DNA from: a virus
Length of the DNA stretch: 64,000 nt
Reading direction: 5' to 3' (one strand)
IMG/VR virus record: IMGVR_UViG_3300035670_000119
Coordinates: 1 to 64,000 of that record
Position numbers and translations under genes: made by a program
Notes under the pieces: generated by a model
The model's input: the letters and a program-made list of their open reading frames with translations, nothing else
Told to the model about the DNA's origin: nothing
Database searches by the model: none
Part shown: one piece after another, positions 5,094-46,396 of the stretch
Position numbering within the stretch: the stretch's first letter is position 1
Layout of the letters: each line of letters starts with the position of its first letter

Positions 5094-5282
5094 ATGGACA
5101 TTACTGTCGGCATGGGTGAGTGGATGAATAGTCTCATGAGTCGCATGACAAGTGCGGCAGATGGGGACTGTTTTTATCTGCCCACACTCATGCACCTCCA
5201 TGCTTACAACTTGCTAAAGGAGAGCTGTTTCCCAGATAAAAACTTTAAAGTAGCCGTAGAAAAGACTGTTTTAAGCAAATGA
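5094..5282 (+). CDS. Unknown small protein coupled to primase-helicase
   Basis: A 62-residue frame (GDCFYLPTLMHLHAYNLLKE in its middle) ends at TGA 5280-5282, overlapping the primase-helicase ATG by 4 bp. That arrangement is typical of translational coupling. The start could be ATG 5094 or the in-frame ATG 5112. The opposite strand also has a long frame here, but it lacks such coupling. Function unknown. Confidence 0.55.
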   Translation: MDITVGMGEWMNSLMSRMTSAADGDCFYLPTLMHLHAYNLLKESCFPDKNFKVAVEKTVLSK

Positions 5283-7921
5283 CGCAAAAGCAATACGCTG
5301 TTAAGCCAGGTGAAATTCGCCTTGATCTTCTCCCTATTGACTGGCCCTTCACACCATTAGGCGGTAAAAAAGATCCGTATGTCATTGGCTGGCAAAAGAA
5401 ACCTTTTAGTGCCGATGAGATCGAAAAAGAAATTCTGTCAGGTGACTGCAAGGCGGTTGGTCTCCATGGGGGTCCTGTCTTCAATCATCCCTATGGTTTG
5501 GTTTGGGTTGATGTGGATGGAGCAAGCATCTACAAACTTGTGGAAGAAATCTCTGGTCTTCCGTTCAACAATGCACTTCCTCCAACTCTCACCATTCTGA
5601 GTGGTAAACCCGGACGCGAACGCAAGCTATATCGTGTTGAAAAGAAAAAACACGATGCTTTCCTGCGTAATAAGTACGTTTGGCATAGTAAGGAAGTAGC
5701 CGAAGAAAAACTTGAAATCCTTTGGAAGCGGCACCAAGGGGTATTGATGGGTCTACATCCAGAGACTAAAGGTTACTTCACCGCAGAAGGTCAGGGTTTC
5801 GAGTGGGTTAATCGTCTACCAGAGATGCCAGCTTGGTTGCTGAATGGCATCATCAATAAAAACGTACAGCAAGGTAAACCGCCACAAGAAATTACGCGGC
5901 GGGTAACAGCAGGCAGTGTTGTCCAATCAATAACTGGACAAGAACGGGAAATCCAAAACGCAAAGGAAGCGGCTTGGGCATTACCTCCTGAAGCTGCAGA
6001 CGACTACGATCTTTGGATCATTGTTGGACAGACGCTTCATTCAGTTGATGAATCGCTACTGGATGAGTGGGATGCTTGGTCCAGGCAATCGGAAAAGTAT
6101 CAAGAGGGTGAGTGTCACAGGCGTTGGCTTTCCTTTACGAAGGGTGGTGGCCGCACGGCTGGGACTCTTTTCCACATGGCAAAGGAGAATGGTTGGTCTC
6201 CTTCTCAGGACTATCGTGCGTTTGGTGTTGATGATGAGACACTGGAGCATGTTTCAAAACTGGTTGAACAAATTGACGAGGATTTAAAACAAATGGCATC
6301 TGTTCCAGCGGCGGTTGAGAAAGATAAAGCTGAGGCTTGGAGTAATACGCACCAAATGCTGGCGCAGAAAACAAGCAAGAAAAAAGAAGAAAAGGAAGAT
6401 AAGCGGCTTTCATCGGATGTGATTGCGGATCGTGTGTTCGACATGTATACCGGCAATCTCCGGTACAGTCAACCTCATGGTCAGTTTTTCTTATATGACC
6501 AGCGGAAAGGATTATGGGAGCCTTTGACCAAGGTTGAGATGCTTGGGAGCTTGCGAGAAAAACTCAAAACCCTTGTCACCATAGAAAACGACAAGTTCAA
6601 AGGGTTCAGCACGAACCTTATGAATGACATCTACTCGCAACTGCAATCTATCATTCCTTTTGATGAGTGGTACGACGGCTCCAGGTATCTGCTGTTTACC
6701 AATGGGGTCTTGGATGTTGAGACCAAGGAGCTGATGGATTTCCGCCGGGATCTTTATCTGACGCAGCAAATGCCCTACGACTATGATCCTGCTGCTACAT
6801 GTGAAGAAATTGTTAAGTGGCTGAAGCACACGCAGCATGACAGCTACCAGCGGGCACAGGTTCTTCGTGCCTGGCTGAGGGCAACACTACTCGGTCGCCA
6901 TGAAATTCAGAAGTTTGTTGAAATCGTGGGACCCGGTAAGTCTGGTAAATCAACCTATGCAAACCTTGCTGTTGCACTGGTTGGTAAGCAGAATACTTAC
7001 TCAACGGACTTTGAAAACCTGGAGAAGAACCGTTTTGAGGCGGCAAGTTACATGGGTAAGAAGCTGCTTCTCTTCCAGGATGCAGATCGATGGGGTGGTT
7101 CTGTCTCCAAACTGAAAGCAATCACGGGTGGTGACTGGATTCGCTCGGAACGTAAGTATCAAACTGAAAGTCAAGATCCATTCCAGTACCACGGAATGGT
7201 CATGATTACAGCTAATGAAGCTATCCAGTCTACCGACTACACATCTGGTCTTGCCCGTCGCCGTCTGACTATTCCCTTTGATCGTCCCTTTGCCGGTGGC
7301 CAAGCAGAACAAAAGGAACTAATTAAGTTCGACAACAAAGGTAACCCGCAAGGTGTCTTTGCTCCTCTTCTGGCTGGTCTCGTCAACTGGTTACTGGATA
7401 TGACAGAGGAGGACATGCGTTCCTATCTCATGGAAACTGGTAAGAATGTCTCGTTCTTCCAGCGGTATGAGAAGACGCAAAGCCTGCGCTCTAATCCACT
7501 ACTGGACTGGATGGACCATAAAGTTGTCTTTGATCCGAACGTCAGCTCTCCCGTTGGCTTCTGTAAGGTGCAACCGGGCGGTGGTTCCGGTTACTACGAC
7601 AACTGGGACAAATGGTTGTACGCAAGCTATGCAGAATTCTGCCGCAGCTGCAATGTCGGCATCATGTCGCGTGGTCGTTTTGAACCCCTATTCCTGGACA
7701 TCTGTCGCCACCAGCTAAAGATCAATGTCTACGGCGTTAAGAACAGTAAGGGACTGCGCATCATCAATGCTGTTGTCCGTGACTCAAATAAAACGCAGTA
7801 TGAAAACTATCCCTCCATTGTTGAGGTCGCGGCTAATCCTGAAAAATACAGCGAATTCTATGGGGCCTGCTTATCAACAACTACCGATGAGATAATGGAT
7901 GAAAATGCAACAGACATGTGA
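5279..7921 (+). CDS. Primase-polymerase / SF3 helicase fusion
   Basis: The 880-residue protein combines three parts. Residues 1-190 are a Prim-Pol domain with the metal-binding VWVDVDG (75-81), SGKPGRERKLYR (108-119) and LMGLHPETKGY (156-166). Residues about 235-310 match the PriCT-2 linker (DDYDLWIIVGQTLHS, DEWDAWSRQS, TLFHMAKENGW). Residues about 385-720 are a D5-like superfamily 3 helicase with Walker A GPGKSGKST (551-559), Walker B LLLFQDADRW (596-605) and an arginine-rich ARRRLTIPFD. Such proteins make primers and unwind the replication fork. It is the only core replication enzyme in the window; no DNA polymerase is present here. The gene overlaps its neighbours by 4 bp on both sides. 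Confidence 0.9.
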   Translation: MTQKQYAVKPGEIRLDLLPIDWPFTPLGGKKDPYVIGWQKKPFSADEIEKEILSGDCKAVGLHGGPVFNHPYGLVWVDVDGASIYKLVEEISGLPFNNALPPTLTILSGKPGRERKLYRVEKKKHDAFLRNKYVWHSKEVAEEKLEILWKRHQGVLMGLHPETKGYFTAEGQGFEWVNRLPEMPAWLLNGIINKNVQQGKPPQEITRRVTAGSVVQSITGQEREIQNAKEAAWALPPEAADDYDLWIIVGQTLHSVDESLLDEWDAWSRQSEKYQEGECHRRWLSFTKGGGRTAGTLFHMAKENGWSPSQDYRAFGVDDETLEHVSKLVEQIDEDLKQMASVPAAVEKDKAEAWSNTHQMLAQKTSKKKEEKEDKRLSSDVIADRVFDMYTGNLRYSQPHGQFFLYDQRKGLWEPLTKVEMLGSLREKLKTLVTIENDKFKGFSTNLMNDIYSQLQSIIPFDEWYDGSRYLLFTNGVLDVETKELMDFRRDLYLTQQMPYDYDPAATCEEIVKWLKHTQHDSYQRAQVLRAWLRATLLGRHEIQKFVEIVGPGKSGKSTYANLAVALVGKQNTYSTDFENLEKNRFEAASYMGKKLLLFQDADRWGGSVSKLKAITGGDWIRSERKYQTESQDPFQYHGMVMITANEAIQSTDYTSGLARRRLTIPFDRPFAGGQAEQKELIKFDNKGNPQGVFAPLLAGLVNWLLDMTEEDMRSYLMETGKNVSFFQRYEKTQSLRSNPLLDWMDHKVVFDPNVSSPVGFCKVQPGGGSGYYDNWDKWLYASYAEFCRSCNVGIMSRGRFEPLFLDICRHQLKINVYGVKNSKGLRIINAVVRDSNKTQYENYPSIVEVAANPEKYSEFYGACLSTTTDEIMDENATDM

Positions 7922-8302: not shown

Positions 8303-9595
8303 ATGAGTAAAAAGACAAAGATTTTGTGGTGTGGTGACATCGTCGCCATGACTGGCTTCGCACGCGTCACCGAAAACGTCATCTATCGCCTGAAGGATGA
8401 CTTCGAGATTGTTGTCCTCGGCCACAACTGGTGGGGTGACCCGTGCGATCAACAGAAAGATTTCAAGATGTATCCGTCGTCCAACCGGTTCCAGACGGCG
8501 CCCTTTGGTGAGCAACGCATTCGAGAGATAGTAGAAAAAGAAGAACCGGATATCGTTTTCTCGATTAACGATATGTGGATTATCAATGAGCAATACCGGC
8601 AAATCGAGGATCTACACAGGGCGGGTAGGTTCAAGTTCGTTGGTTACGCCCCAATGGACTCGTATGGGTGGATTGGCTGCCTTGCGGATACCGCCAACAA
8701 CTGGGACTCCATCATTTCCTATACGGAATTTGGTGCTCACGAATTTGTAAAAGGTGGCATCAATAAACCGATCGCCGTCATCCCCCACGGCGTTACGCCT
8801 GGTCAGTTCTATCCCAAGGACAAGGCGGAATGTCGTCGCAAGCTGGGTCTCGATGAAGACCTTTTCATCGTGTTCAACGGAAACAGGAATCAGTTCCGTA
8901 AGCGGATTGACATCACCATCAAGGCATTTGCCGAGTTTGCGGTTGGGCGCCCTGAGACCCGTCTGTACCTCCACATGGGCATGAAGGACCAAGGCTGGGA
9001 TGTGATGAATATCTTCGGCAGGGAAATGTCAAGGATGGGTCTGGATCCCAACGGGCGCATCATCATGACAGCACAGACGGAAGGGCCGCCGAACGTATCC
9101 GTGGACATGCTCAACACCATCTATAACGCCTGTGATGTGGGCATCAATACCTGCAAAGGTGAGGGCTGGGGTCTTGTCAACTTTGAACACGCTGCATGTG
9201 GTGTGCCACAGGTGGTGCCTGACCATACGTCATGCAAGGAGATCTTTGAGGGCTATGGCGAGCTGATCCGCTGCGACCACGTTGATGTGGATACCAATTA
9301 CGGACGTGAGATGCCTTGCCCCTCTGTTGAGCACCTCGTGGAAATCCTGGACCAGCTCTACACATTTCCTGAGATATGCGACAAGGTTGGGCAGCAGTGC
9401 TACCGGCGGGCTACTGATCCTCAATTCTCATGGGACACAGTTGCGTCTCAGTTTGGTGGCATCTTTGAGGATGTGATGAACCAGGTGGATCACTCAGTCC
9501 AACCTGAGATCAATGTTGAGATTGGTGAGAAGCCCAAAGCACGTAAGAAGAAAGGTAAACCGATGCGTCGTGAGCTGGCAAGTGCCGTAAAGTAA
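8303..9595 (+). CDS. Glycosyltransferase, GT4-like (GT-B fold)
   Basis: The 430-residue protein starts with GDIVAMTGFARVTENVIYRL, a Rossmann-type acceptor domain with a glycine loop. It continues to PIAVIPHGVTPGQFYP (about 155-170), and contains the donor-binding signature CKGEGWGLVNFEHAACGVPQ (about 283-303), in which the two glutamates of the E-x7-E motif are visible. The last 25 residues are a basic tail (KARKKKGKP). It is the final gene before a terminator. The likely role is sugar transfer to phage DNA, virion proteins or host surface; the sequence does not decide. Confidence 0.85.
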   Translation: MSKKTKILWCGDIVAMTGFARVTENVIYRLKDDFEIVVLGHNWWGDPCDQQKDFKMYPSSNRFQTAPFGEQRIREIVEKEEPDIVFSINDMWIINEQYRQIEDLHRAGRFKFVGYAPMDSYGWIGCLADTANNWDSIISYTEFGAHEFVKGGINKPIAVIPHGVTPGQFYPKDKAECRRKLGLDEDLFIVFNGNRNQFRKRIDITIKAFAEFAVGRPETRLYLHMGMKDQGWDVMNIFGREMSRMGLDPNGRIIMTAQTEGPPNVSVDMLNTIYNACDVGINTCKGEGWGLVNFEHAACGVPQVVPDHTSCKEIFEGYGELIRCDHVDVDTNYGREMPCPSVEHLVEILDQLYTFPEICDKVGQQCYRRATDPQFSWDTVASQFGGIFEDVMNQVDHSVQPEINVEIGEKPKARKKKGKPMRRELASAVK

Positions 9596-9618
9596 GCGGG
9601 CGACAAATGGGGAGACCG

Positions 9619-9650
9619 GCCTCTGCTGAAAAGCAGGGGCTTTTTTTGTT
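9619..9650 (+). terminator. Rho-independent terminator after glycosyltransferase gene
   Basis: A 9-bp stem with one wobble or mismatch (9619-9627 with 9632-9640), a GAAA tetraloop and a run of seven T form a typical terminator 24 bp after the gene's stop. It closes the replication operon. Confidence 0.9.
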
Positions 9651-9678
9651 GCGTGGTGATACAAAACTAGGGAACAAC

Positions 9679-9709
9679 GGTCGGACTTTGGTCGGACTTT
9701 CCGACTTTG
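9679..9709. repeat. Tandem 11-bp direct repeat GGTCGGACTTT
   Basis: GGTCGGACTTT occurs twice in tandem (9679-9689 and 9690-9700), directly followed by the related CCGACTTTG. The segment 9695-9709 is repeated as an exact 15-bp reverse complement at 9874-9888, so the repeat forms the left arm of a long-range stem that encloses two more hairpins. Confidence 0.75.
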
Positions 9710-9739
9710 GGGGTATTTCTATCTTTAATCACACGAGAG

Positions 9740-9771
9740 CCCATACACTTTGGGGGGTTAAAGTGTATGGG
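9740..9771. other. Perfect 12-bp hairpin with G-rich loop
   Basis: CCCATACACTTT (9740-9751) and AAAGTGTATGGG (9760-9771) pair perfectly around the 8-nt loop GGGGGGTT. The loop is complementary over 7 bases to the loop of the hairpin at 9812-9843. No T-run follows, so it is not a terminator. Confidence 0.8.
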
Positions 9772-9811
9772 TAGCAGGATCACGTTCTCGGCTTGGTCTC
9801 ACGGTAAGAAA

Positions 9812-9843
9812 CCCTTACACTTTGACCCCCCGAAATGTAAGGG
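9812..9843. other. Hairpin with C-rich loop complementary to its neighbour
   Basis: CCCTTACA (9812-9819) pairs with TGTAAGGG (9836-9843), with partial continuation inwards. The loop holds ACCCCCC (9825-9831), the complement of GGGGGGT in the loop at 9752-9758. The stem sequence also resembles that of the first hairpin (C-C-x-TACACTTTG), as if one arose from the other. Confidence 0.75.
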
Positions 9844-9917
9844 GAGTTTTTAGAATAAAGGTGAAACCGGGGGCAAAGTCGGAAAGTCTGCCCTCCCCCT
9901 CCCATCTATTTCAATTC

Positions 9918-10634
9918 ATGGCAAACATCCCCAAAAAGATCGCATCCCTGGTAAAGGAGCACGACTCTTTCCGTCATGTACCCAATACCGAGCGGCTTAG
10001 TACTGATGAACTAACTGCAAACGGTCTTTACAGGGGCTATCCCTGCCCCCATGGACATGACATCCGCCTGCTTGACAACCACTCCTGCTATCACTGCGCC
10101 TGCAAGATCAGAGACAACATCTGTGGCTTTGACGTGAACTACATGCAGGAGGAGTACAAACGCAAGTACGCGGACCTTTGGAGCCAGATTGCCGTTGGTG
10201 ATCCCAGTGAGTGCTGGGAGGCGCCAGGGCTGACGCAGAAACGCATCTGTTTGCCCTCCTACAGGTCGCTGTACGCCAGGGACAAGTCAACCAATGTCAC
10301 CGCCCACAAGGCGATTTACCAATGTGCCTGGGGGGACGTGGGTGCGTTGTTCGTGACGAGAGTATGTGGGAACAAAACGTGTCTCAACCCTCTCCATTTG
10401 GTCTCAAGCTGGAATCGCTTGTTCCCTCCCAGCGTGATCAGCCCCTTTGACTACGCGTTCCAGCCCGAAAAGCTAATGCAATATCAACAGGTGCAAGACG
10501 TAAACCAACTCAAAGTATTACGCGAACGTTACTACAAGTGCACTATTCAGAACCCTTTGGTTAACCAAAACAACTCGGATTATGATAGTGAATATACACA
10601 GTATTACCAATCCGAATGGCAAGAAACCAGTTGA
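9918..10634 (+). CDS. His-Me finger (HNH-like) nuclease candidate with zinc knuckle
   Basis: From ATG 9918 the product is 238 residues. It has a Cys/His knuckle (CPHGHDIRLLDNHSCYHCAC, about 36-55) and, further on, THKA-like VTAHKAIYQCAWG and CGNKTCLNPLHLVSSWNR (about 150-167). The C-x4-C-x-NP-x-HL pattern is typical of His-Me finger homing endonucleases with a zinc-stabilised fold. An in-frame upstream start at 9822 would run through the structured region and is unlikely. It may be a mobile nuclease or a DNA-binding protein derived from one. The next gene overlaps its end by 19 bp. Confidence 0.65.
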   Translation: MANIPKKIASLVKEHDSFRHVPNTERLSTDELTANGLYRGYPCPHGHDIRLLDNHSCYHCACKIRDNICGFDVNYMQEEYKRKYADLWSQIAVGDPSECWEAPGLTQKRICLPSYRSLYARDKSTNVTAHKAIYQCAWGDVGALFVTRVCGNKTCLNPLHLVSSWNRLFPPSVISPFDYAFQPEKLMQYQQVQDVNQLKVLRERYYKCTIQNPLVNQNNSDYDSEYTQYYQSEWQETS

Positions 10635-26262: not shown

Positions 26263-27880
26263 ATTGCTGGCAGTAAACCAATAAGTTTTGAACAAACCAA
26301 CCCATGTGATACCCTCGTTTCATGTCTTTGATTAAAGCGTCTTCTATCCCTGGCATATGACATAGACCAGGTGTTTTATCCATTAGGTCTCTCCAGTATT
26401 CTTTTGGTTTGCAGTTAATGTGGCCAACCCCACCTTGACCAGGGGCTGCTGCTGTCCAAATTAAAATTCCCTTTGGTGCTAAACAACGCAAAATAGCTTG
26501 GATGATTTCTTTGTTTTTGGATTCATCCATGTGCTCAGCTACTTCCATACACAAAACTACGCCAGCCTTTTCCTCAGGCGTGACAGTTAAAAGGTCTTGG
26601 CAAAAAAGATTGGGCTTACCTTCTATCCGTGGATCAATATCGTATCCAATTGCATCAATCCCTAGTTCGTTAAAACAGTCAACGTACGTCCCTGGTCCAC
26701 AACCAAGATCAATCAGAAGATCGGGACTGAAGTAAGCATCGTCAATCCAACGAGCCAACCTTTTGGCAAAGGGTTTTTCCTCTATATCAAGACTGGTGTA
26801 ATCAATGACATCATGATTTTTCAGTTGATACCAGCCTTTTTCCCATAACGCATTGATGTCCTTGAAAATCTTGTCATATTTCTCACCACAAGTTTCCAGG
26901 CTATAGCGTTCTCTTGTGATACGTGCAATTTGTTTTCGGTCTAAATCACCTGCTTTTTCAATTGCATCAATCCAATCTTGAAGAGTGTGGCATCTAAAGC
27001 CTGTGACACCATCCACAATGGTTTCTGTGAATGCACCGTAGTCAACGGCAATTAGCGGTGTACCGCAAAGCATTGCCTCTACGCCACTACCCCCAAAAGG
27101 CTCAGTAAAGTTGGTTGGCATCAATGCTGCTCGTGCATTACGCAAAAAGTTGGAGCGCTCCATACCAGAGATGGGCCCTTCATAAAAGATGTTGGGGTGT
27201 TCCCAAGGGGATGGATCTCCTTGTCCATGGAGAATAATAGGCCACGGACTGTAGTCGGCAATAGCACGAATGGTGTCCAGCCCCTTGGCGCTACAGATGC
27301 GTCCAAGAAACGCCAGGTAATCTCCTGGCTTTTCCTTAGGTTCCCATTCATCAAGGTCAAAGTAATTAGGGACAACCCACTCGTAGTTTTTGCCTTGGCG
27401 GTTTTCTTTGCCCTGGTGATAGTGCATCCAGGCGTAAGACTCAAAGATCCGAAAACTATTTGGCATCAATGTTGGATAGCCAATTCCGGTCTCAACGTGA
27501 TGGTTGTTGGGAAACTCAGACAACAACTTTTGATGAGCATGCCCAAACGGATGACAAATGATGTCTTTCTCTTTGACCCGTTTACGTAGTTCAACAATCA
27601 GACGTTCTTCAAATACCTTGTGAGCAGGGCTGCCCACATATGCGTGATCTCCGAAGAAATCTGTTTCCCTCCTGGCGCCAAAGAAAGAACGGAACTCTTC
27701 TTCGTTCAAGATTTCTACATGTTCGTCAGCGGTTGATTCGCTGCCGTAATTTGAGTATTCAGTAACCTCGTAGCCGAACCGCTGCATCATCTTTGGAAAG
27801 CGTAAAACTTTTCCAGTAAATGCGCAGTGCGAATAATCCAGGGCCGTACGCGTGTGGAACAAGCCAATAAGGTGAAGCAT
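26261..27880 (-). CDS. Glycosyltransferase-methyltransferase fusion protein
   Basis: From the ATG at 27878-27880 the protein is 539 residues. Residues about 1-350 are a GT-B/GT4 glycosyltransferase: FLGRICSAKGLDTIRAIADY, IILHGQGD, and the donor motif TEPFGGSGVEAMLCGTPL with both glutamates. Residues about 385-520 are a class I methyltransferase with LLIDLGCGPGTYVDCF, an acidic YDIDP and CMEVAEHMDE. The fusion suggests coupled sugar transfer and glycan methylation. It is the last gene of the virion block, 1 gene after the collagen-like fibre, so glycosylation of that fibre's threonines is a reasonable hypothesis. A TTG at 27886 is an alternative start. Confidence 0.85.
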   Translation of the reverse strand: MLHLIGLFHTRTALDYSHCAFTGKVLRFPKMMQRFGYEVTEYSNYGSESTADEHVEILNEEEFRSFFGARRETDFFGDHAYVGSPAHKVFEERLIVELRKRVKEKDIICHPFGHAHQKLLSEFPNNHHVETGIGYPTLMPNSFRIFESYAWMHYHQGKENRQGKNYEWVVPNYFDLDEWEPKEKPGDYLAFLGRICSAKGLDTIRAIADYSPWPIILHGQGDPSPWEHPNIFYEGPISGMERSNFLRNARAALMPTNFTEPFGGSGVEAMLCGTPLIAVDYGAFTETIVDGVTGFRCHTLQDWIDAIEKAGDLDRKQIARITRERYSLETCGEKYDKIFKDINALWEKGWYQLKNHDVIDYTSLDIEEKPFAKRLARWIDDAYFSPDLLIDLGCGPGTYVDCFNELGIDAIGYDIDPRIEGKPNLFCQDLLTVTPEEKAGVVLCMEVAEHMDESKNKEIIQAILRCLAPKGILIWTAAAPGQGGVGHINCKPKEYWRDLMDKTPGLCHMPGIEDALIKDMKRGYHMGWFVQNLLVYCQQ

Positions 27881-44869: not shown

Positions 44870-46396
44870 TTAGTAATCAACCTGAAGCTGACCTTTTCGC
44901 ATTAAACCGGTAAGCAAAAACACAAGTGCGTCGACACAGTCATCGTGGCTGCTAACGCCAAAGTTAGTCAACTCCTCAAACATTGAAGTGAAATTGCGGA
45001 AGCGATTAAAAATAATTTTTCGATCCTCAAACATCCCCATGCAGCCACGGAAACGTGCAAGTTTATCCGCACGGAAACCTTTGACAGCATGCCAATTCAA
45101 GTTGTACAAACCTTCATTGTTCAAACAGATACGTTTAAAGTCTGCCTCCAGGGAAGCCTGATACGCCACAGCCTCGCTCCAGATATCACAAGTTGAATAC
45201 GTAGGAAAGTAATTACCAGAGTCGTCTTTCCCAAGAACAGACCAATCGTTTAACAATTCTTTGAGGGCATCTAGTTTCTCTAGATTACCCATGACACGTA
45301 AACGTCTGTAATCGATGATATGAATTTGATCGCCTATGCGGCCACCAAGAACCATGACCGTGTAATCGTTTTTCTCCTTAGTACCAACAGAGAGATCAAC
45401 CCCGATTCCGAGGGTGTCAAATTCAGTTGAGATTTCAGCCTTAACGATCAGCTCTGGCGCCAGAGACAACTCGTTTTGTCTAACAACCTGATTCATGTAC
45501 TGGAAAGAAAAAGCAATAGGAGCTTGCCGCTTTTTTTCCTTTAGATAGTCCAGAGACCACATCTCTGGCCAGTAAGAAATTTCTTCCCCTGTTTTGGGAT
45601 CATTAAGAATGGCGGACAAGACAATCTGCTGCCAATTGTTTTGCTCGTTAAAAGTTGTGGAATGAATGTCATCATGGCGAAAGCGTGTGCCAAGGCAAAT
45701 TGCACGTCCTCCCTCGAACATGGTGGGCGCAATCACAGCGTTCCAGTTTTCCTGCATCTGTTTGCGGATATCTGGGTTGGCAATATCAGCGGCAGATTTA
45801 ATGGCGTCATCAATCATCACCAGGTGTGAGCGCTTAGAGGTCACAGAACCTTTCAAACCAGCCGCGCAAAGCGTAAACTGTTCTTCACCCGTGGTATCAA
45901 TGCCAGCAAACTTGTGATCAATTGACCAGTACTCATTACTGGTTACGTTCTTCAATAGACGTACTTTTGGGAAGACTTCTTGGTATCGTTTGCTTTCGAT
46001 GATACGTTTGATAGTTGCAGATTTAGAACGAGCAATATCAACGGTGTAGGAAAGATAAAGAATTTGAAGTGGTTTTTGAGCATGAGTATGGATGCCAATG
46101 GCCCAAGCTGTCAGCAGACCTAGTACTGTTGACTTAGCGGAACCACGGGGGGCCAAGAGGTCGACGTTAGGTCCAGCAATCTTGATGAGGCAACTACTAT
46201 CTTCGTGGGTAACGAAGTGGCGATGCCAATACTTGTGATGCGTGGCGGGAGGCTTATCAGCTACATACTCACAAAAGAAACCAAAATCTTCTCGTGCACG
46301 CTCAATATTTTCTAAGTTTTTATGTGGTCTAATTTGTTGCTTTTGTGCTGCCGCCCTGGCATTACGTCGATATGCAAGATGTTGGTAAGCAGGCAC
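44870..46396 (-). CDS. terL: Terminase large subunit
   Basis: The 508-residue protein has the ATPase motifs LLAPRGSAKST (Walker A, about 80-90) and HLVMIDDAI (Walker B, about 191-199), and the RNase H-like nuclease acidic sites GVDLSVGTKEKNDYTVMVLG (Asp334) and SSHDDCVDALVFLL (C-terminal). It packs DNA into the prohead and cuts it to length. The start codon is GTG at 46394-46396. The portal lies three genes downstream as usual. Confidence 0.9.
   Translation of the reverse strand: MPAYQHLAYRRNARAAAQKQQIRPHKNLENIERAREDFGFFCEYVADKPPATHHKYWHRHFVTHEDSSCLIKIAGPNVDLLAPRGSAKSTVLGLLTAWAIGIHTHAQKPLQILYLSYTVDIARSKSATIKRIIESKRYQEVFPKVRLLKNVTSNEYWSIDHKFAGIDTTGEEQFTLCAAGLKGSVTSKRSHLVMIDDAIKSAADIANPDIRKQMQENWNAVIAPTMFEGGRAICLGTRFRHDDIHSTTFNEQNNWQQIVLSAILNDPKTGEEISYWPEMWSLDYLKEKKRQAPIAFSFQYMNQVVRQNELSLAPELIVKAEISTEFDTLGIGVDLSVGTKEKNDYTVMVLGGRIGDQIHIIDYRRLRVMGNLEKLDALKELLNDWSVLGKDDSGNYFPTYSTCDIWSEAVAYQASLEADFKRICLNNEGLYNLNWHAVKGFRADKLARFRGCMGMFEDRKIIFNRFRNFTSMFEELTNFGVSSHDDCVDALVFLLTGLMRKGQLQVDY

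What the first reader, a model, noticed from the sequence alone, without database searches (positions are those of the whole stretch)
9651..9917. Structured non-coding region with two hairpins whose loops are complementary
A 12-bp hairpin with loop GGGGGGTT (9752-9759) and a second hairpin with loop containing ACCCCCC (9825-9831) can pair loop to loop over 7 G-C-rich bases. Both sit inside a 15-bp exact inverted repeat (9695-9709 with 9874-9888), whose left arm is preceded by a tandem GGTCGGACTTT repeat. Nested symmetry of this kind is not expected by chance and is not explained by terminators. It could be a replication origin, a kissing-loop regulatory RNA or a DNA-processing/packaging site.
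Basis: seen in the sequence. Interest (0 to 1): 0.75.

Follow-up and report, generated by a model that had tools for sequence, protein, structure and literature searches.

The report
Large palindromic likely phage replication origin
A non-coding stretch of about 200 bases in this virus of cyanobacteria is one big, nested DNA palindrome; most of about 100 related viruses have a palindrome at the same place, downstream of the gene for their DNA-copying starter protein, which makes it the likely spot where the virus begins to copy its genome, rather than an RNA switch.

Summary
The hairpins, the complementary loops and the 15-bp inverted repeat are parts of one imperfect palindrome (9690-9893), the strongest in the window. 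The virus belongs to the Synechococcus phage S-EIV1 lineage. Syntenic sites in 101 related records were tested: 88 hold a palindrome above all 60 shuffles, although the arm sequences diverge.

It is not an RNA. Over 45 representatives, G.U and A.C mismatches in the palindromes are equal (241 vs 246). In the intrinsic terminators of the same regions, which are genuine RNA hairpins, they are 74 vs 1. The kissing loop is not conserved; loop complementarity follows from the larger palindrome.

The site lies 3' of the replication gene (Prim-Pol + PriCT_2 + D5-type helicase), found upstream in all 66 loci with room. Proteins of this class in plasmid pRN1 need a stem-loop 3' of the gene (PMC4234260, PMC3869888). 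In BPP-1, Acinetobacter phage 4316, BcepC6B and LincolnB the genome's strongest palindrome also lies just 3' of that gene; in the first three, and in this window, the arms carry tandem 9-11-bp repeats.

Best reading: a replication origin recognised by the primase-helicase (0.65). No replication experiment exists, and GC skew does not help.

The parts
5279..7921 (+). Replication protein gene: Prim-Pol + PriCT_2 + D5_N + DUF5906 (SF3-type helicase), proposed initiator
   Evidence: Pfam/PHROGs; 55% identical to the S-EIV1 primase
8303..9595 (+). Glycosyltransferase gene, syntenic upstream neighbour
9618..9650 (+). Intrinsic terminator of the upstream operon (not part of the palindrome)
   Evidence: RNA-type G.U bias in terminators of these regions
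9679..9700 (+). Tandem 11-bp direct repeat GGTCGGACTTT x2, possible initiator-binding iterons; a third partial copy CCGACTTTG follows at 9701-9709
   Evidence: invariant or nearly so in seven close relatives
9690..9893 (.). Imperfect palindrome, about 204 nt, the proposed origin
9695..9709 (.). Left arm of the outer 15-bp exact inverted repeat
9716..9732 (.). Conserved A+T-rich left segment TTTCTATCTTTAATCAC (faces 9851-9866 in the palindrome)
   Evidence: (largely invariant)
9740..9771 (.). Left inner hairpin, 12 bp, loop GGGGGGTT
   Evidence: double-sided change at one pair
9812..9843 (.). Right inner hairpin, 8+3 bp with a bulged C, loop containing ACCCCCC
9851..9866 (.). Conserved A+T-rich right segment TAGAATAAAGGTGAAA
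9874..9893 (.). Right outer arm CAAAGTCGGAAAGTCTGCCC, inverted copies of the iteron
9918..10634 (+). HNH endonuclease-like gene directly downstream, syntenic in the lineage; possible accessory nuclease
   Evidence: PHROGs; alignment; only weak His-Me-finger fold matches

Best explanation
The region is a DNA element, most likely the replication origin of S-EIV1-like cyanophages. Shown: a large imperfect palindrome lies in the gap between the primase/glycosyltransferase genes and the HNH genes in most of the lineage tested, and its symmetry behaves as DNA symmetry, not RNA pairing. Inferred: the phage replication protein (Prim-Pol, PriCT_2, SF3 D5-type helicase) binds the repeated motifs in the arms (GGTCGGACTTT in this phage). 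The palindrome then opens or is extruded into hairpins, the helicase loads on both halves, and the Prim-Pol domain makes the first primers. This follows the scheme proposed for pRN1 and BIP-1/BPP-1 in PMC4234260.
For: (1) Palindromes at the site exceed all 60 shuffles in 88 of 101 regions. It is the strongest palindrome in the window (112 vs 62) and in the complete isolate S-EIV1 (96 vs 62). (2) Mismatches in 45 representatives: G.U 241, A.C 246 (p 0.86); terminators of the same regions 74 vs 1 (p 4e-21). (3) Primase gene on the same strand upstream in 66 of 66 loci with room. (4) Domain architecture as in BPP-1. (5) pRN1: a 100-nt stem-loop 3' of the replication gene is required for replication, its structure conserved but not its sequence, and a similar stem-loop was reported in BIP-1 (PMC4234260; PMC3869888). 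(6) Genome-wide strongest palindromes just 3' of the replication gene in BPP-1 (453 nt), Acinetobacter phage 4316 (33 nt), BcepC6B (48 nt, across the record's joined ends) and Paenibacillus phage LincolnB (at the stop codon). In the first three the arms contain tandem 9-bp repeats, as this window's arms contain 11-bp repeats. (7) A phage with Toprim in place of Prim-Pol has no such palindrome (UFOVP1367).
Against: No replication data of any kind. One or two genes lie between the replication gene and the element, whereas in pRN1 it follows directly. Pseudomonas phage MR14 has the same domains but its top palindrome is elsewhere; in Alteromonas phage R9Y2 the palindrome near the gene is on its 5' side and ranks second. 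The comparison set of phages is small and hand-picked. GC skew gives no canonical origin signal: the small GC3-skew drop across the site (84 of 110) has the opposite polarity to a bacterial origin, and the S-EIV1 cumulative minimum and maximum are at about 33 and 73 kb. Tandem repeats are absent from many relatives' arms.
Confidence: 0.65

Rival explanations
1. A regulatory DNA region: a large operator/promoter array that switches the downstream HNH genes, bound by a phage or host regulator.
For: It lies between a terminator and the next transcription unit. S-EIV1 has a TGCTATAAT extended -10-like box between palindrome and gene (by eye). Recurrent GTCTCA/TGAGAC motifs occur near or in the element.
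Against: No sigma-70-like promoter was found in the window or S-EIV1 region. Palindromes of 120-360 nt are far larger than usual operators, and similar palindromes sit beside replication genes in unrelated phages with different neighbours.
Confidence: 0.13
2. A packaging or processing site cut with help from the adjacent HNH nuclease, as reported for HK97, or a target of homing endonucleases.
For: One or two HNH genes sit directly downstream throughout the lineage. HK97 HNH/terminase cooperation is discussed in PMC10448857.
Against: The large terminase is at 44.9-46.4 kb in the window, about 35 kb away, and about 31 kb away the shorter way round the S-EIV1 circle. The palindrome occurs whether or not the small HNH gene is present.
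Confidence: 0.1
3. A structured RNA (leader or kissing-loop regulator) acting in cis on the HNH gene.
For: Strong fold (z -7.0); double-sided changes in the local hairpins.
Against: No G.U excess over A.C; kissing pairs lost in L007 and reduced in L144; no Rfam match; terminator just upstream and no promoter found.
Confidence: 0.04
4. A miniature inverted-repeat element or other insertion, kept by chance.
For: Terminal-inverted-repeat-like ends; arm sequence variable between relatives.
Against: Only one such palindrome in S-EIV1 and in this window; same syntenic position across the lineage; the pattern matches that resemble the element lie at that position. Target-site duplications were not tested.
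Confidence: 0.03

Closest known systems
Stem-loop replication origin of Sulfolobus plasmid pRN1 and relatives (PMC4234260, PMC3869888)
   Same: Replication protein with archaeo-eukaryotic primase and SF3 helicase; long stem-loop 3' of its gene; structure conserved while sequence is not.
   Different: About twice as long (204 nt in the window, 120-360 nt in relatives), nested inner hairpins, tandem-repeat arms in this subgroup, one or two genes between replication gene and palindrome, cyanophage instead of archaeal plasmid. Need for replication not tested.
Putative stem-loop origin of Bordetella phages BIP-1/BPP-1 (proposed in PMC4234260)
   Same: Prim-Pol + PriCT_2 + D5_N protein; genome's strongest palindrome 3' of its gene, with two tandem 9-bp repeats per arm.
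   Different: Shorter (133 nt) and without the two nested hairpins. My BPP-1 palindrome (26592-26724) may not be exactly the stem-loop of that paper's figure.
Phage P4 alpha-protein origin (iterons, winged-helix binding; as summarised in PMC4234260)
   Same: Primase-helicase acting as its own origin-binding protein, and direct repeats.
   Different: P4 alpha has a Toprim primase; the P4 origin is described there as repeats, not a large palindrome. No sequence relation tested.

Membership tests
pRN1/BIP-1-type stem-loop origin | Replication protein with Prim-Pol (AEP) and SF3 helicase | tested here: met
   Pfam Prim-Pol, PriCT_2, D5_N, DUF5906 in the window and S-EIV1
pRN1/BIP-1-type stem-loop origin | C-terminal winged-helix DNA-binding domain in that protein | not tested
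   No Pfam hit at the C-terminus; fold not predicted
pRN1/BIP-1-type stem-loop origin | Large stem-loop on the 3' side of the replication gene | tested here: met
   9690-9893; primase upstream on the same strand in 66/66 loci; one or two genes intervene
pRN1/BIP-1-type stem-loop origin | Palindromic structure conserved although sequence is not | tested here: met
   88 of 101 regions above all shuffles, arm sequences diverge
pRN1/BIP-1-type stem-loop origin | Required for replication | not testable with these tools
   needs a genetic or marker-frequency experiment
Structured regulatory RNA | G.U tolerated over A.C in the stems (strand-specific) | tested here: not met
   241 vs 246; terminators 74 vs 1
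Structured regulatory RNA | Kissing loop conserved by compensatory change | tested here: not met
   0/7 in L007, 3/7 in L144
Structured regulatory RNA | Match to a described RNA family | tested here: not met
Iteron origin | Tandem direct repeats in or beside the element | tested here: inconclusive
   GGTCGGACTTT x2 in the window group, 8-9-bp tandems in L057, L178, L034; none found in many others
cos/pac site with HNH cofactor (HK97-like) | Adjacent to the terminase genes | tested here: not met
   terL about 35 kb away
MITE/insertion | Several copies or variable positions | tested here: not met
   one such palindrome in each of the two genomes scanned, fixed synteny

The most novel reading that the evidence does not exclude
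A general, sequence-readable rule: many phages whose initiator is a Prim-Pol/SF3-helicase fusion replicate from a large palindrome with iteron-bearing arms beside that gene. In S-EIV1-like cyanophages it has grown into a nested palindrome of up to 360 nt, kept symmetrical by continual arm-to-arm copying (for example L132, whose left arm exactly mirrors its right arm), perhaps processed by the neighbouring HNH nuclease.
Probability: 0.3. Interest if true: 0.75.

Novelty: new variant of a known kind. Interest (0 to 1): 0.58.

Why it matters
I found no report of an origin for the S-EIV1 lineage in the open-access papers I could search; the S-EIV1 genome paper itself was not available. A specific site, an initiator gene and testable motifs would make replication in this group directly testable. 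The comparison extends the pRN1/BIP-1 stem-loop idea to further phages, gives a simple way to look for such origins (strongest genome-wide palindrome beside a Prim-Pol/SF3 gene), and shows that comparing G.U with A.C mismatches separates DNA palindromes from RNA hairpins.

Tried and rejected
Rfam scan: nothing. DNA similarity to phage records: nothing, so relatives were found by protein. Kissing-loop covariation: not consistent. Promoter scans: none. GC skew, total and GC3: uninformative or of opposite polarity. A single central consensus motif (GTCTTATGAGACTCA): clear in some relatives only. Tandem repeats as a universal feature: not universal. HNH fold search: only weak matches to I-PpoI and I-HmuI, E >= 0.14. 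Comparison phages that did not fit cleanly: MR14, UFOVP1367, R9Y2, ctSAF950, Blf4. Insertion/MITE and packaging readings: see rivals.

Full report
Observation. The fold is far better than shuffles on both strands. Aligning the region to its own reverse complement shows one imperfect palindrome, 9690-9893. The two hairpins are its two halves. All four of their arms are versions of CCCWTACACTTT, and the G6 and C6 loops face each other in the dyad. The loop complementarity is therefore part of the palindrome, not a separate coincidence. In the 64-kb window this is the top palindrome, score 112 against 62 for the next distinct peak.

Context. Upstream on the same strand lie an 880-aa replication protein (Prim-Pol, PriCT_2, D5_N, DUF5906), a glycosyltransferase and its intrinsic terminator (9618-9650). 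Downstream lie an HNH nuclease-like gene and a gene of unknown function. The nearest isolate is Synechococcus phage S-EIV1 (KJ410740; glycosyltransferase 66%, primase 55%, HNH protein 42% identical). The window is thus from the S-EIV1 lineage of cyanophages.

Conservation. Two protein searches fetched loci with the same gene order. In 66 of 66 loci with room, the primase gene lies upstream on the same strand. I took the gap before the first HNH gene in 101 distinct loci and scored it for imperfect palindromes against 60 dinucleotide shuffles each: 88 exceed every shuffle, with spans of roughly 120-360 nt. Many of the 13 that do not are A+T-rich regions with high shuffle scores, and in some the palindrome reaches the edge of the stretch I took. 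In S-EIV1, a complete isolate genome, the same gap holds the strongest palindrome (96 against 62). Arm sequences differ widely between subgroups. In L132 the left arm is an exact mirror of the right arm over more than 20 nt, while the relatives L137 and L071 share the right arm but not the left, which looks like arm-to-arm copying of DNA.

DNA or RNA. If the pairing acted in a + strand RNA, G.U mismatches should be tolerated and A.C mismatches should not; in a DNA dyad both are equal. Over 45 representatives the palindromes show 241 G.U and 246 A.C. As a control in the same regions, the upstream intrinsic terminators, which do act as RNA, show 74 G.U and 1 A.C. The palindrome is therefore a DNA-level symmetry. 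In the seven closest phages the outer repeat is nearly invariant, and the two local hairpins are kept with a double-sided change in each, but the kissing pairs are absent in L007, whose left loop is inverted, and down to 3 of 7 in L144. A kissing-loop RNA is not supported.

What it is. A single, large, syntenic DNA palindrome 3' of a Prim-Pol/SF3-helicase gene matches a known arrangement. In plasmid pRN1 a 100-nt stem-loop 3' of the replication gene is needed for replication; its structure but not its sequence is conserved; and the authors reported a similar stem-loop 3' of the replication gene of phage BIP-1, whose protein has PriCT_2 (PMC4234260; also PMC3869888). I tested this with the same palindrome scan. 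In BPP-1 the top palindrome of the genome (26592-26724) lies 453 nt 3' of the primase gene; in Acinetobacter phage 4316 (32301-32460), 33 nt 3'; in Burkholderia phage BcepC6B, 48 nt 3' (across the joined record ends); in Paenibacillus phage LincolnB (38534-38771) it starts at the stop codon. The first three carry two tandem 9-bp repeats per arm (GCCTCGTTT, AGTGACGTT, GGGACGATA), like GGTCGGACTTT in the window. The first three proteins have an AEP primase domain, PriCT_2 and D5_N; LincolnB has weak Prim-Pol and PriCT_1 matches. Blf4 (helicase without a Prim-Pol match) has a near-perfect hairpin 190 nt 3', ranked second. R9Y2 has its non-coding palindrome 5' of the gene, ranked second. In ctSAF950 (helicase without a Prim-Pol match) the top palindrome is about 1.1 kb 5' of the helicase gene. 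MR14 does not fit, and UFOVP1367, with Toprim instead of Prim-Pol, has none. The set is small and chosen by hand, so this is a lead toward a rule, not a rule.

Mechanism. Proposed: the replication protein binds motifs in the arms, the palindrome opens or is extruded, helicase rings load on both halves, and the Prim-Pol domain primes. Shown here: the palindrome, its conservation, its DNA character, its position and the protein's domains. Inferred: binding, unwinding, priming, and any part played by the HNH protein, whose predicted fold gave only weak matches to His-Me-finger homing endonucleases.

Limits. There is no replication or transcription evidence. GC skew does not mark the site as a bacterial-type origin; the small GC3 drop across it has the opposite polarity. 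A regulatory array or a processing site cannot be excluded. Terminase is about 35 kb away, and no sigma-70-like promoter was found.

Verdict. Real, conserved and not an RNA; most likely the replication origin of S-EIV1-like cyanophages and a larger, nested variant of the stem-loop origins proposed for pRN1 and BIP-1.

Noticed in passing
window 44870-46396 (-) against KJ410740 54080-56620: The S-EIV1 large terminase aligns to the window's in two blocks (residues 1-200 and 532-846) that are contiguous in the window: an insertion of about 330 aa, intein-like, in S-EIV1 only.
   Followed up: no
L010:2419-2842 and most relatives: A small HNH_3-type gene lies between the palindrome and the large HNH gene in most relatives but is absent in the window group and in L057, L071, L132 and L137.
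   Followed up: partly
L191:7709-7921: In S-EIV1 the sequence ATCTTACATATCC occurs three times in the half of the genome scanned as L191, all within or beside the palindrome, one copy just before the HNH start codon; none in the other half.
   Followed up: no
L007:3752-3987: The left hairpin loop is close to the reverse complement of the window's (TACCCCCC against GGGGGGTT), as if the hairpin had been inverted.
   Followed up: partly
L144:5099-5815: The HNH gene of this relative has an in-frame stop about 11 codons before the expected end.
   Followed up: no
L201:36244-36446: Paenibacillus phage LincolnB has a second strong palindrome just 5' of its primase gene, with repeated GAAGG/CCTTC motifs.
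   Followed up: no
L197:66-188: Pseudomonas phage MR14 has an inverted repeat of about 30 nt around a tRNA-like GGTTCAAGTCCCGCC segment near the record start.
   Followed up: no
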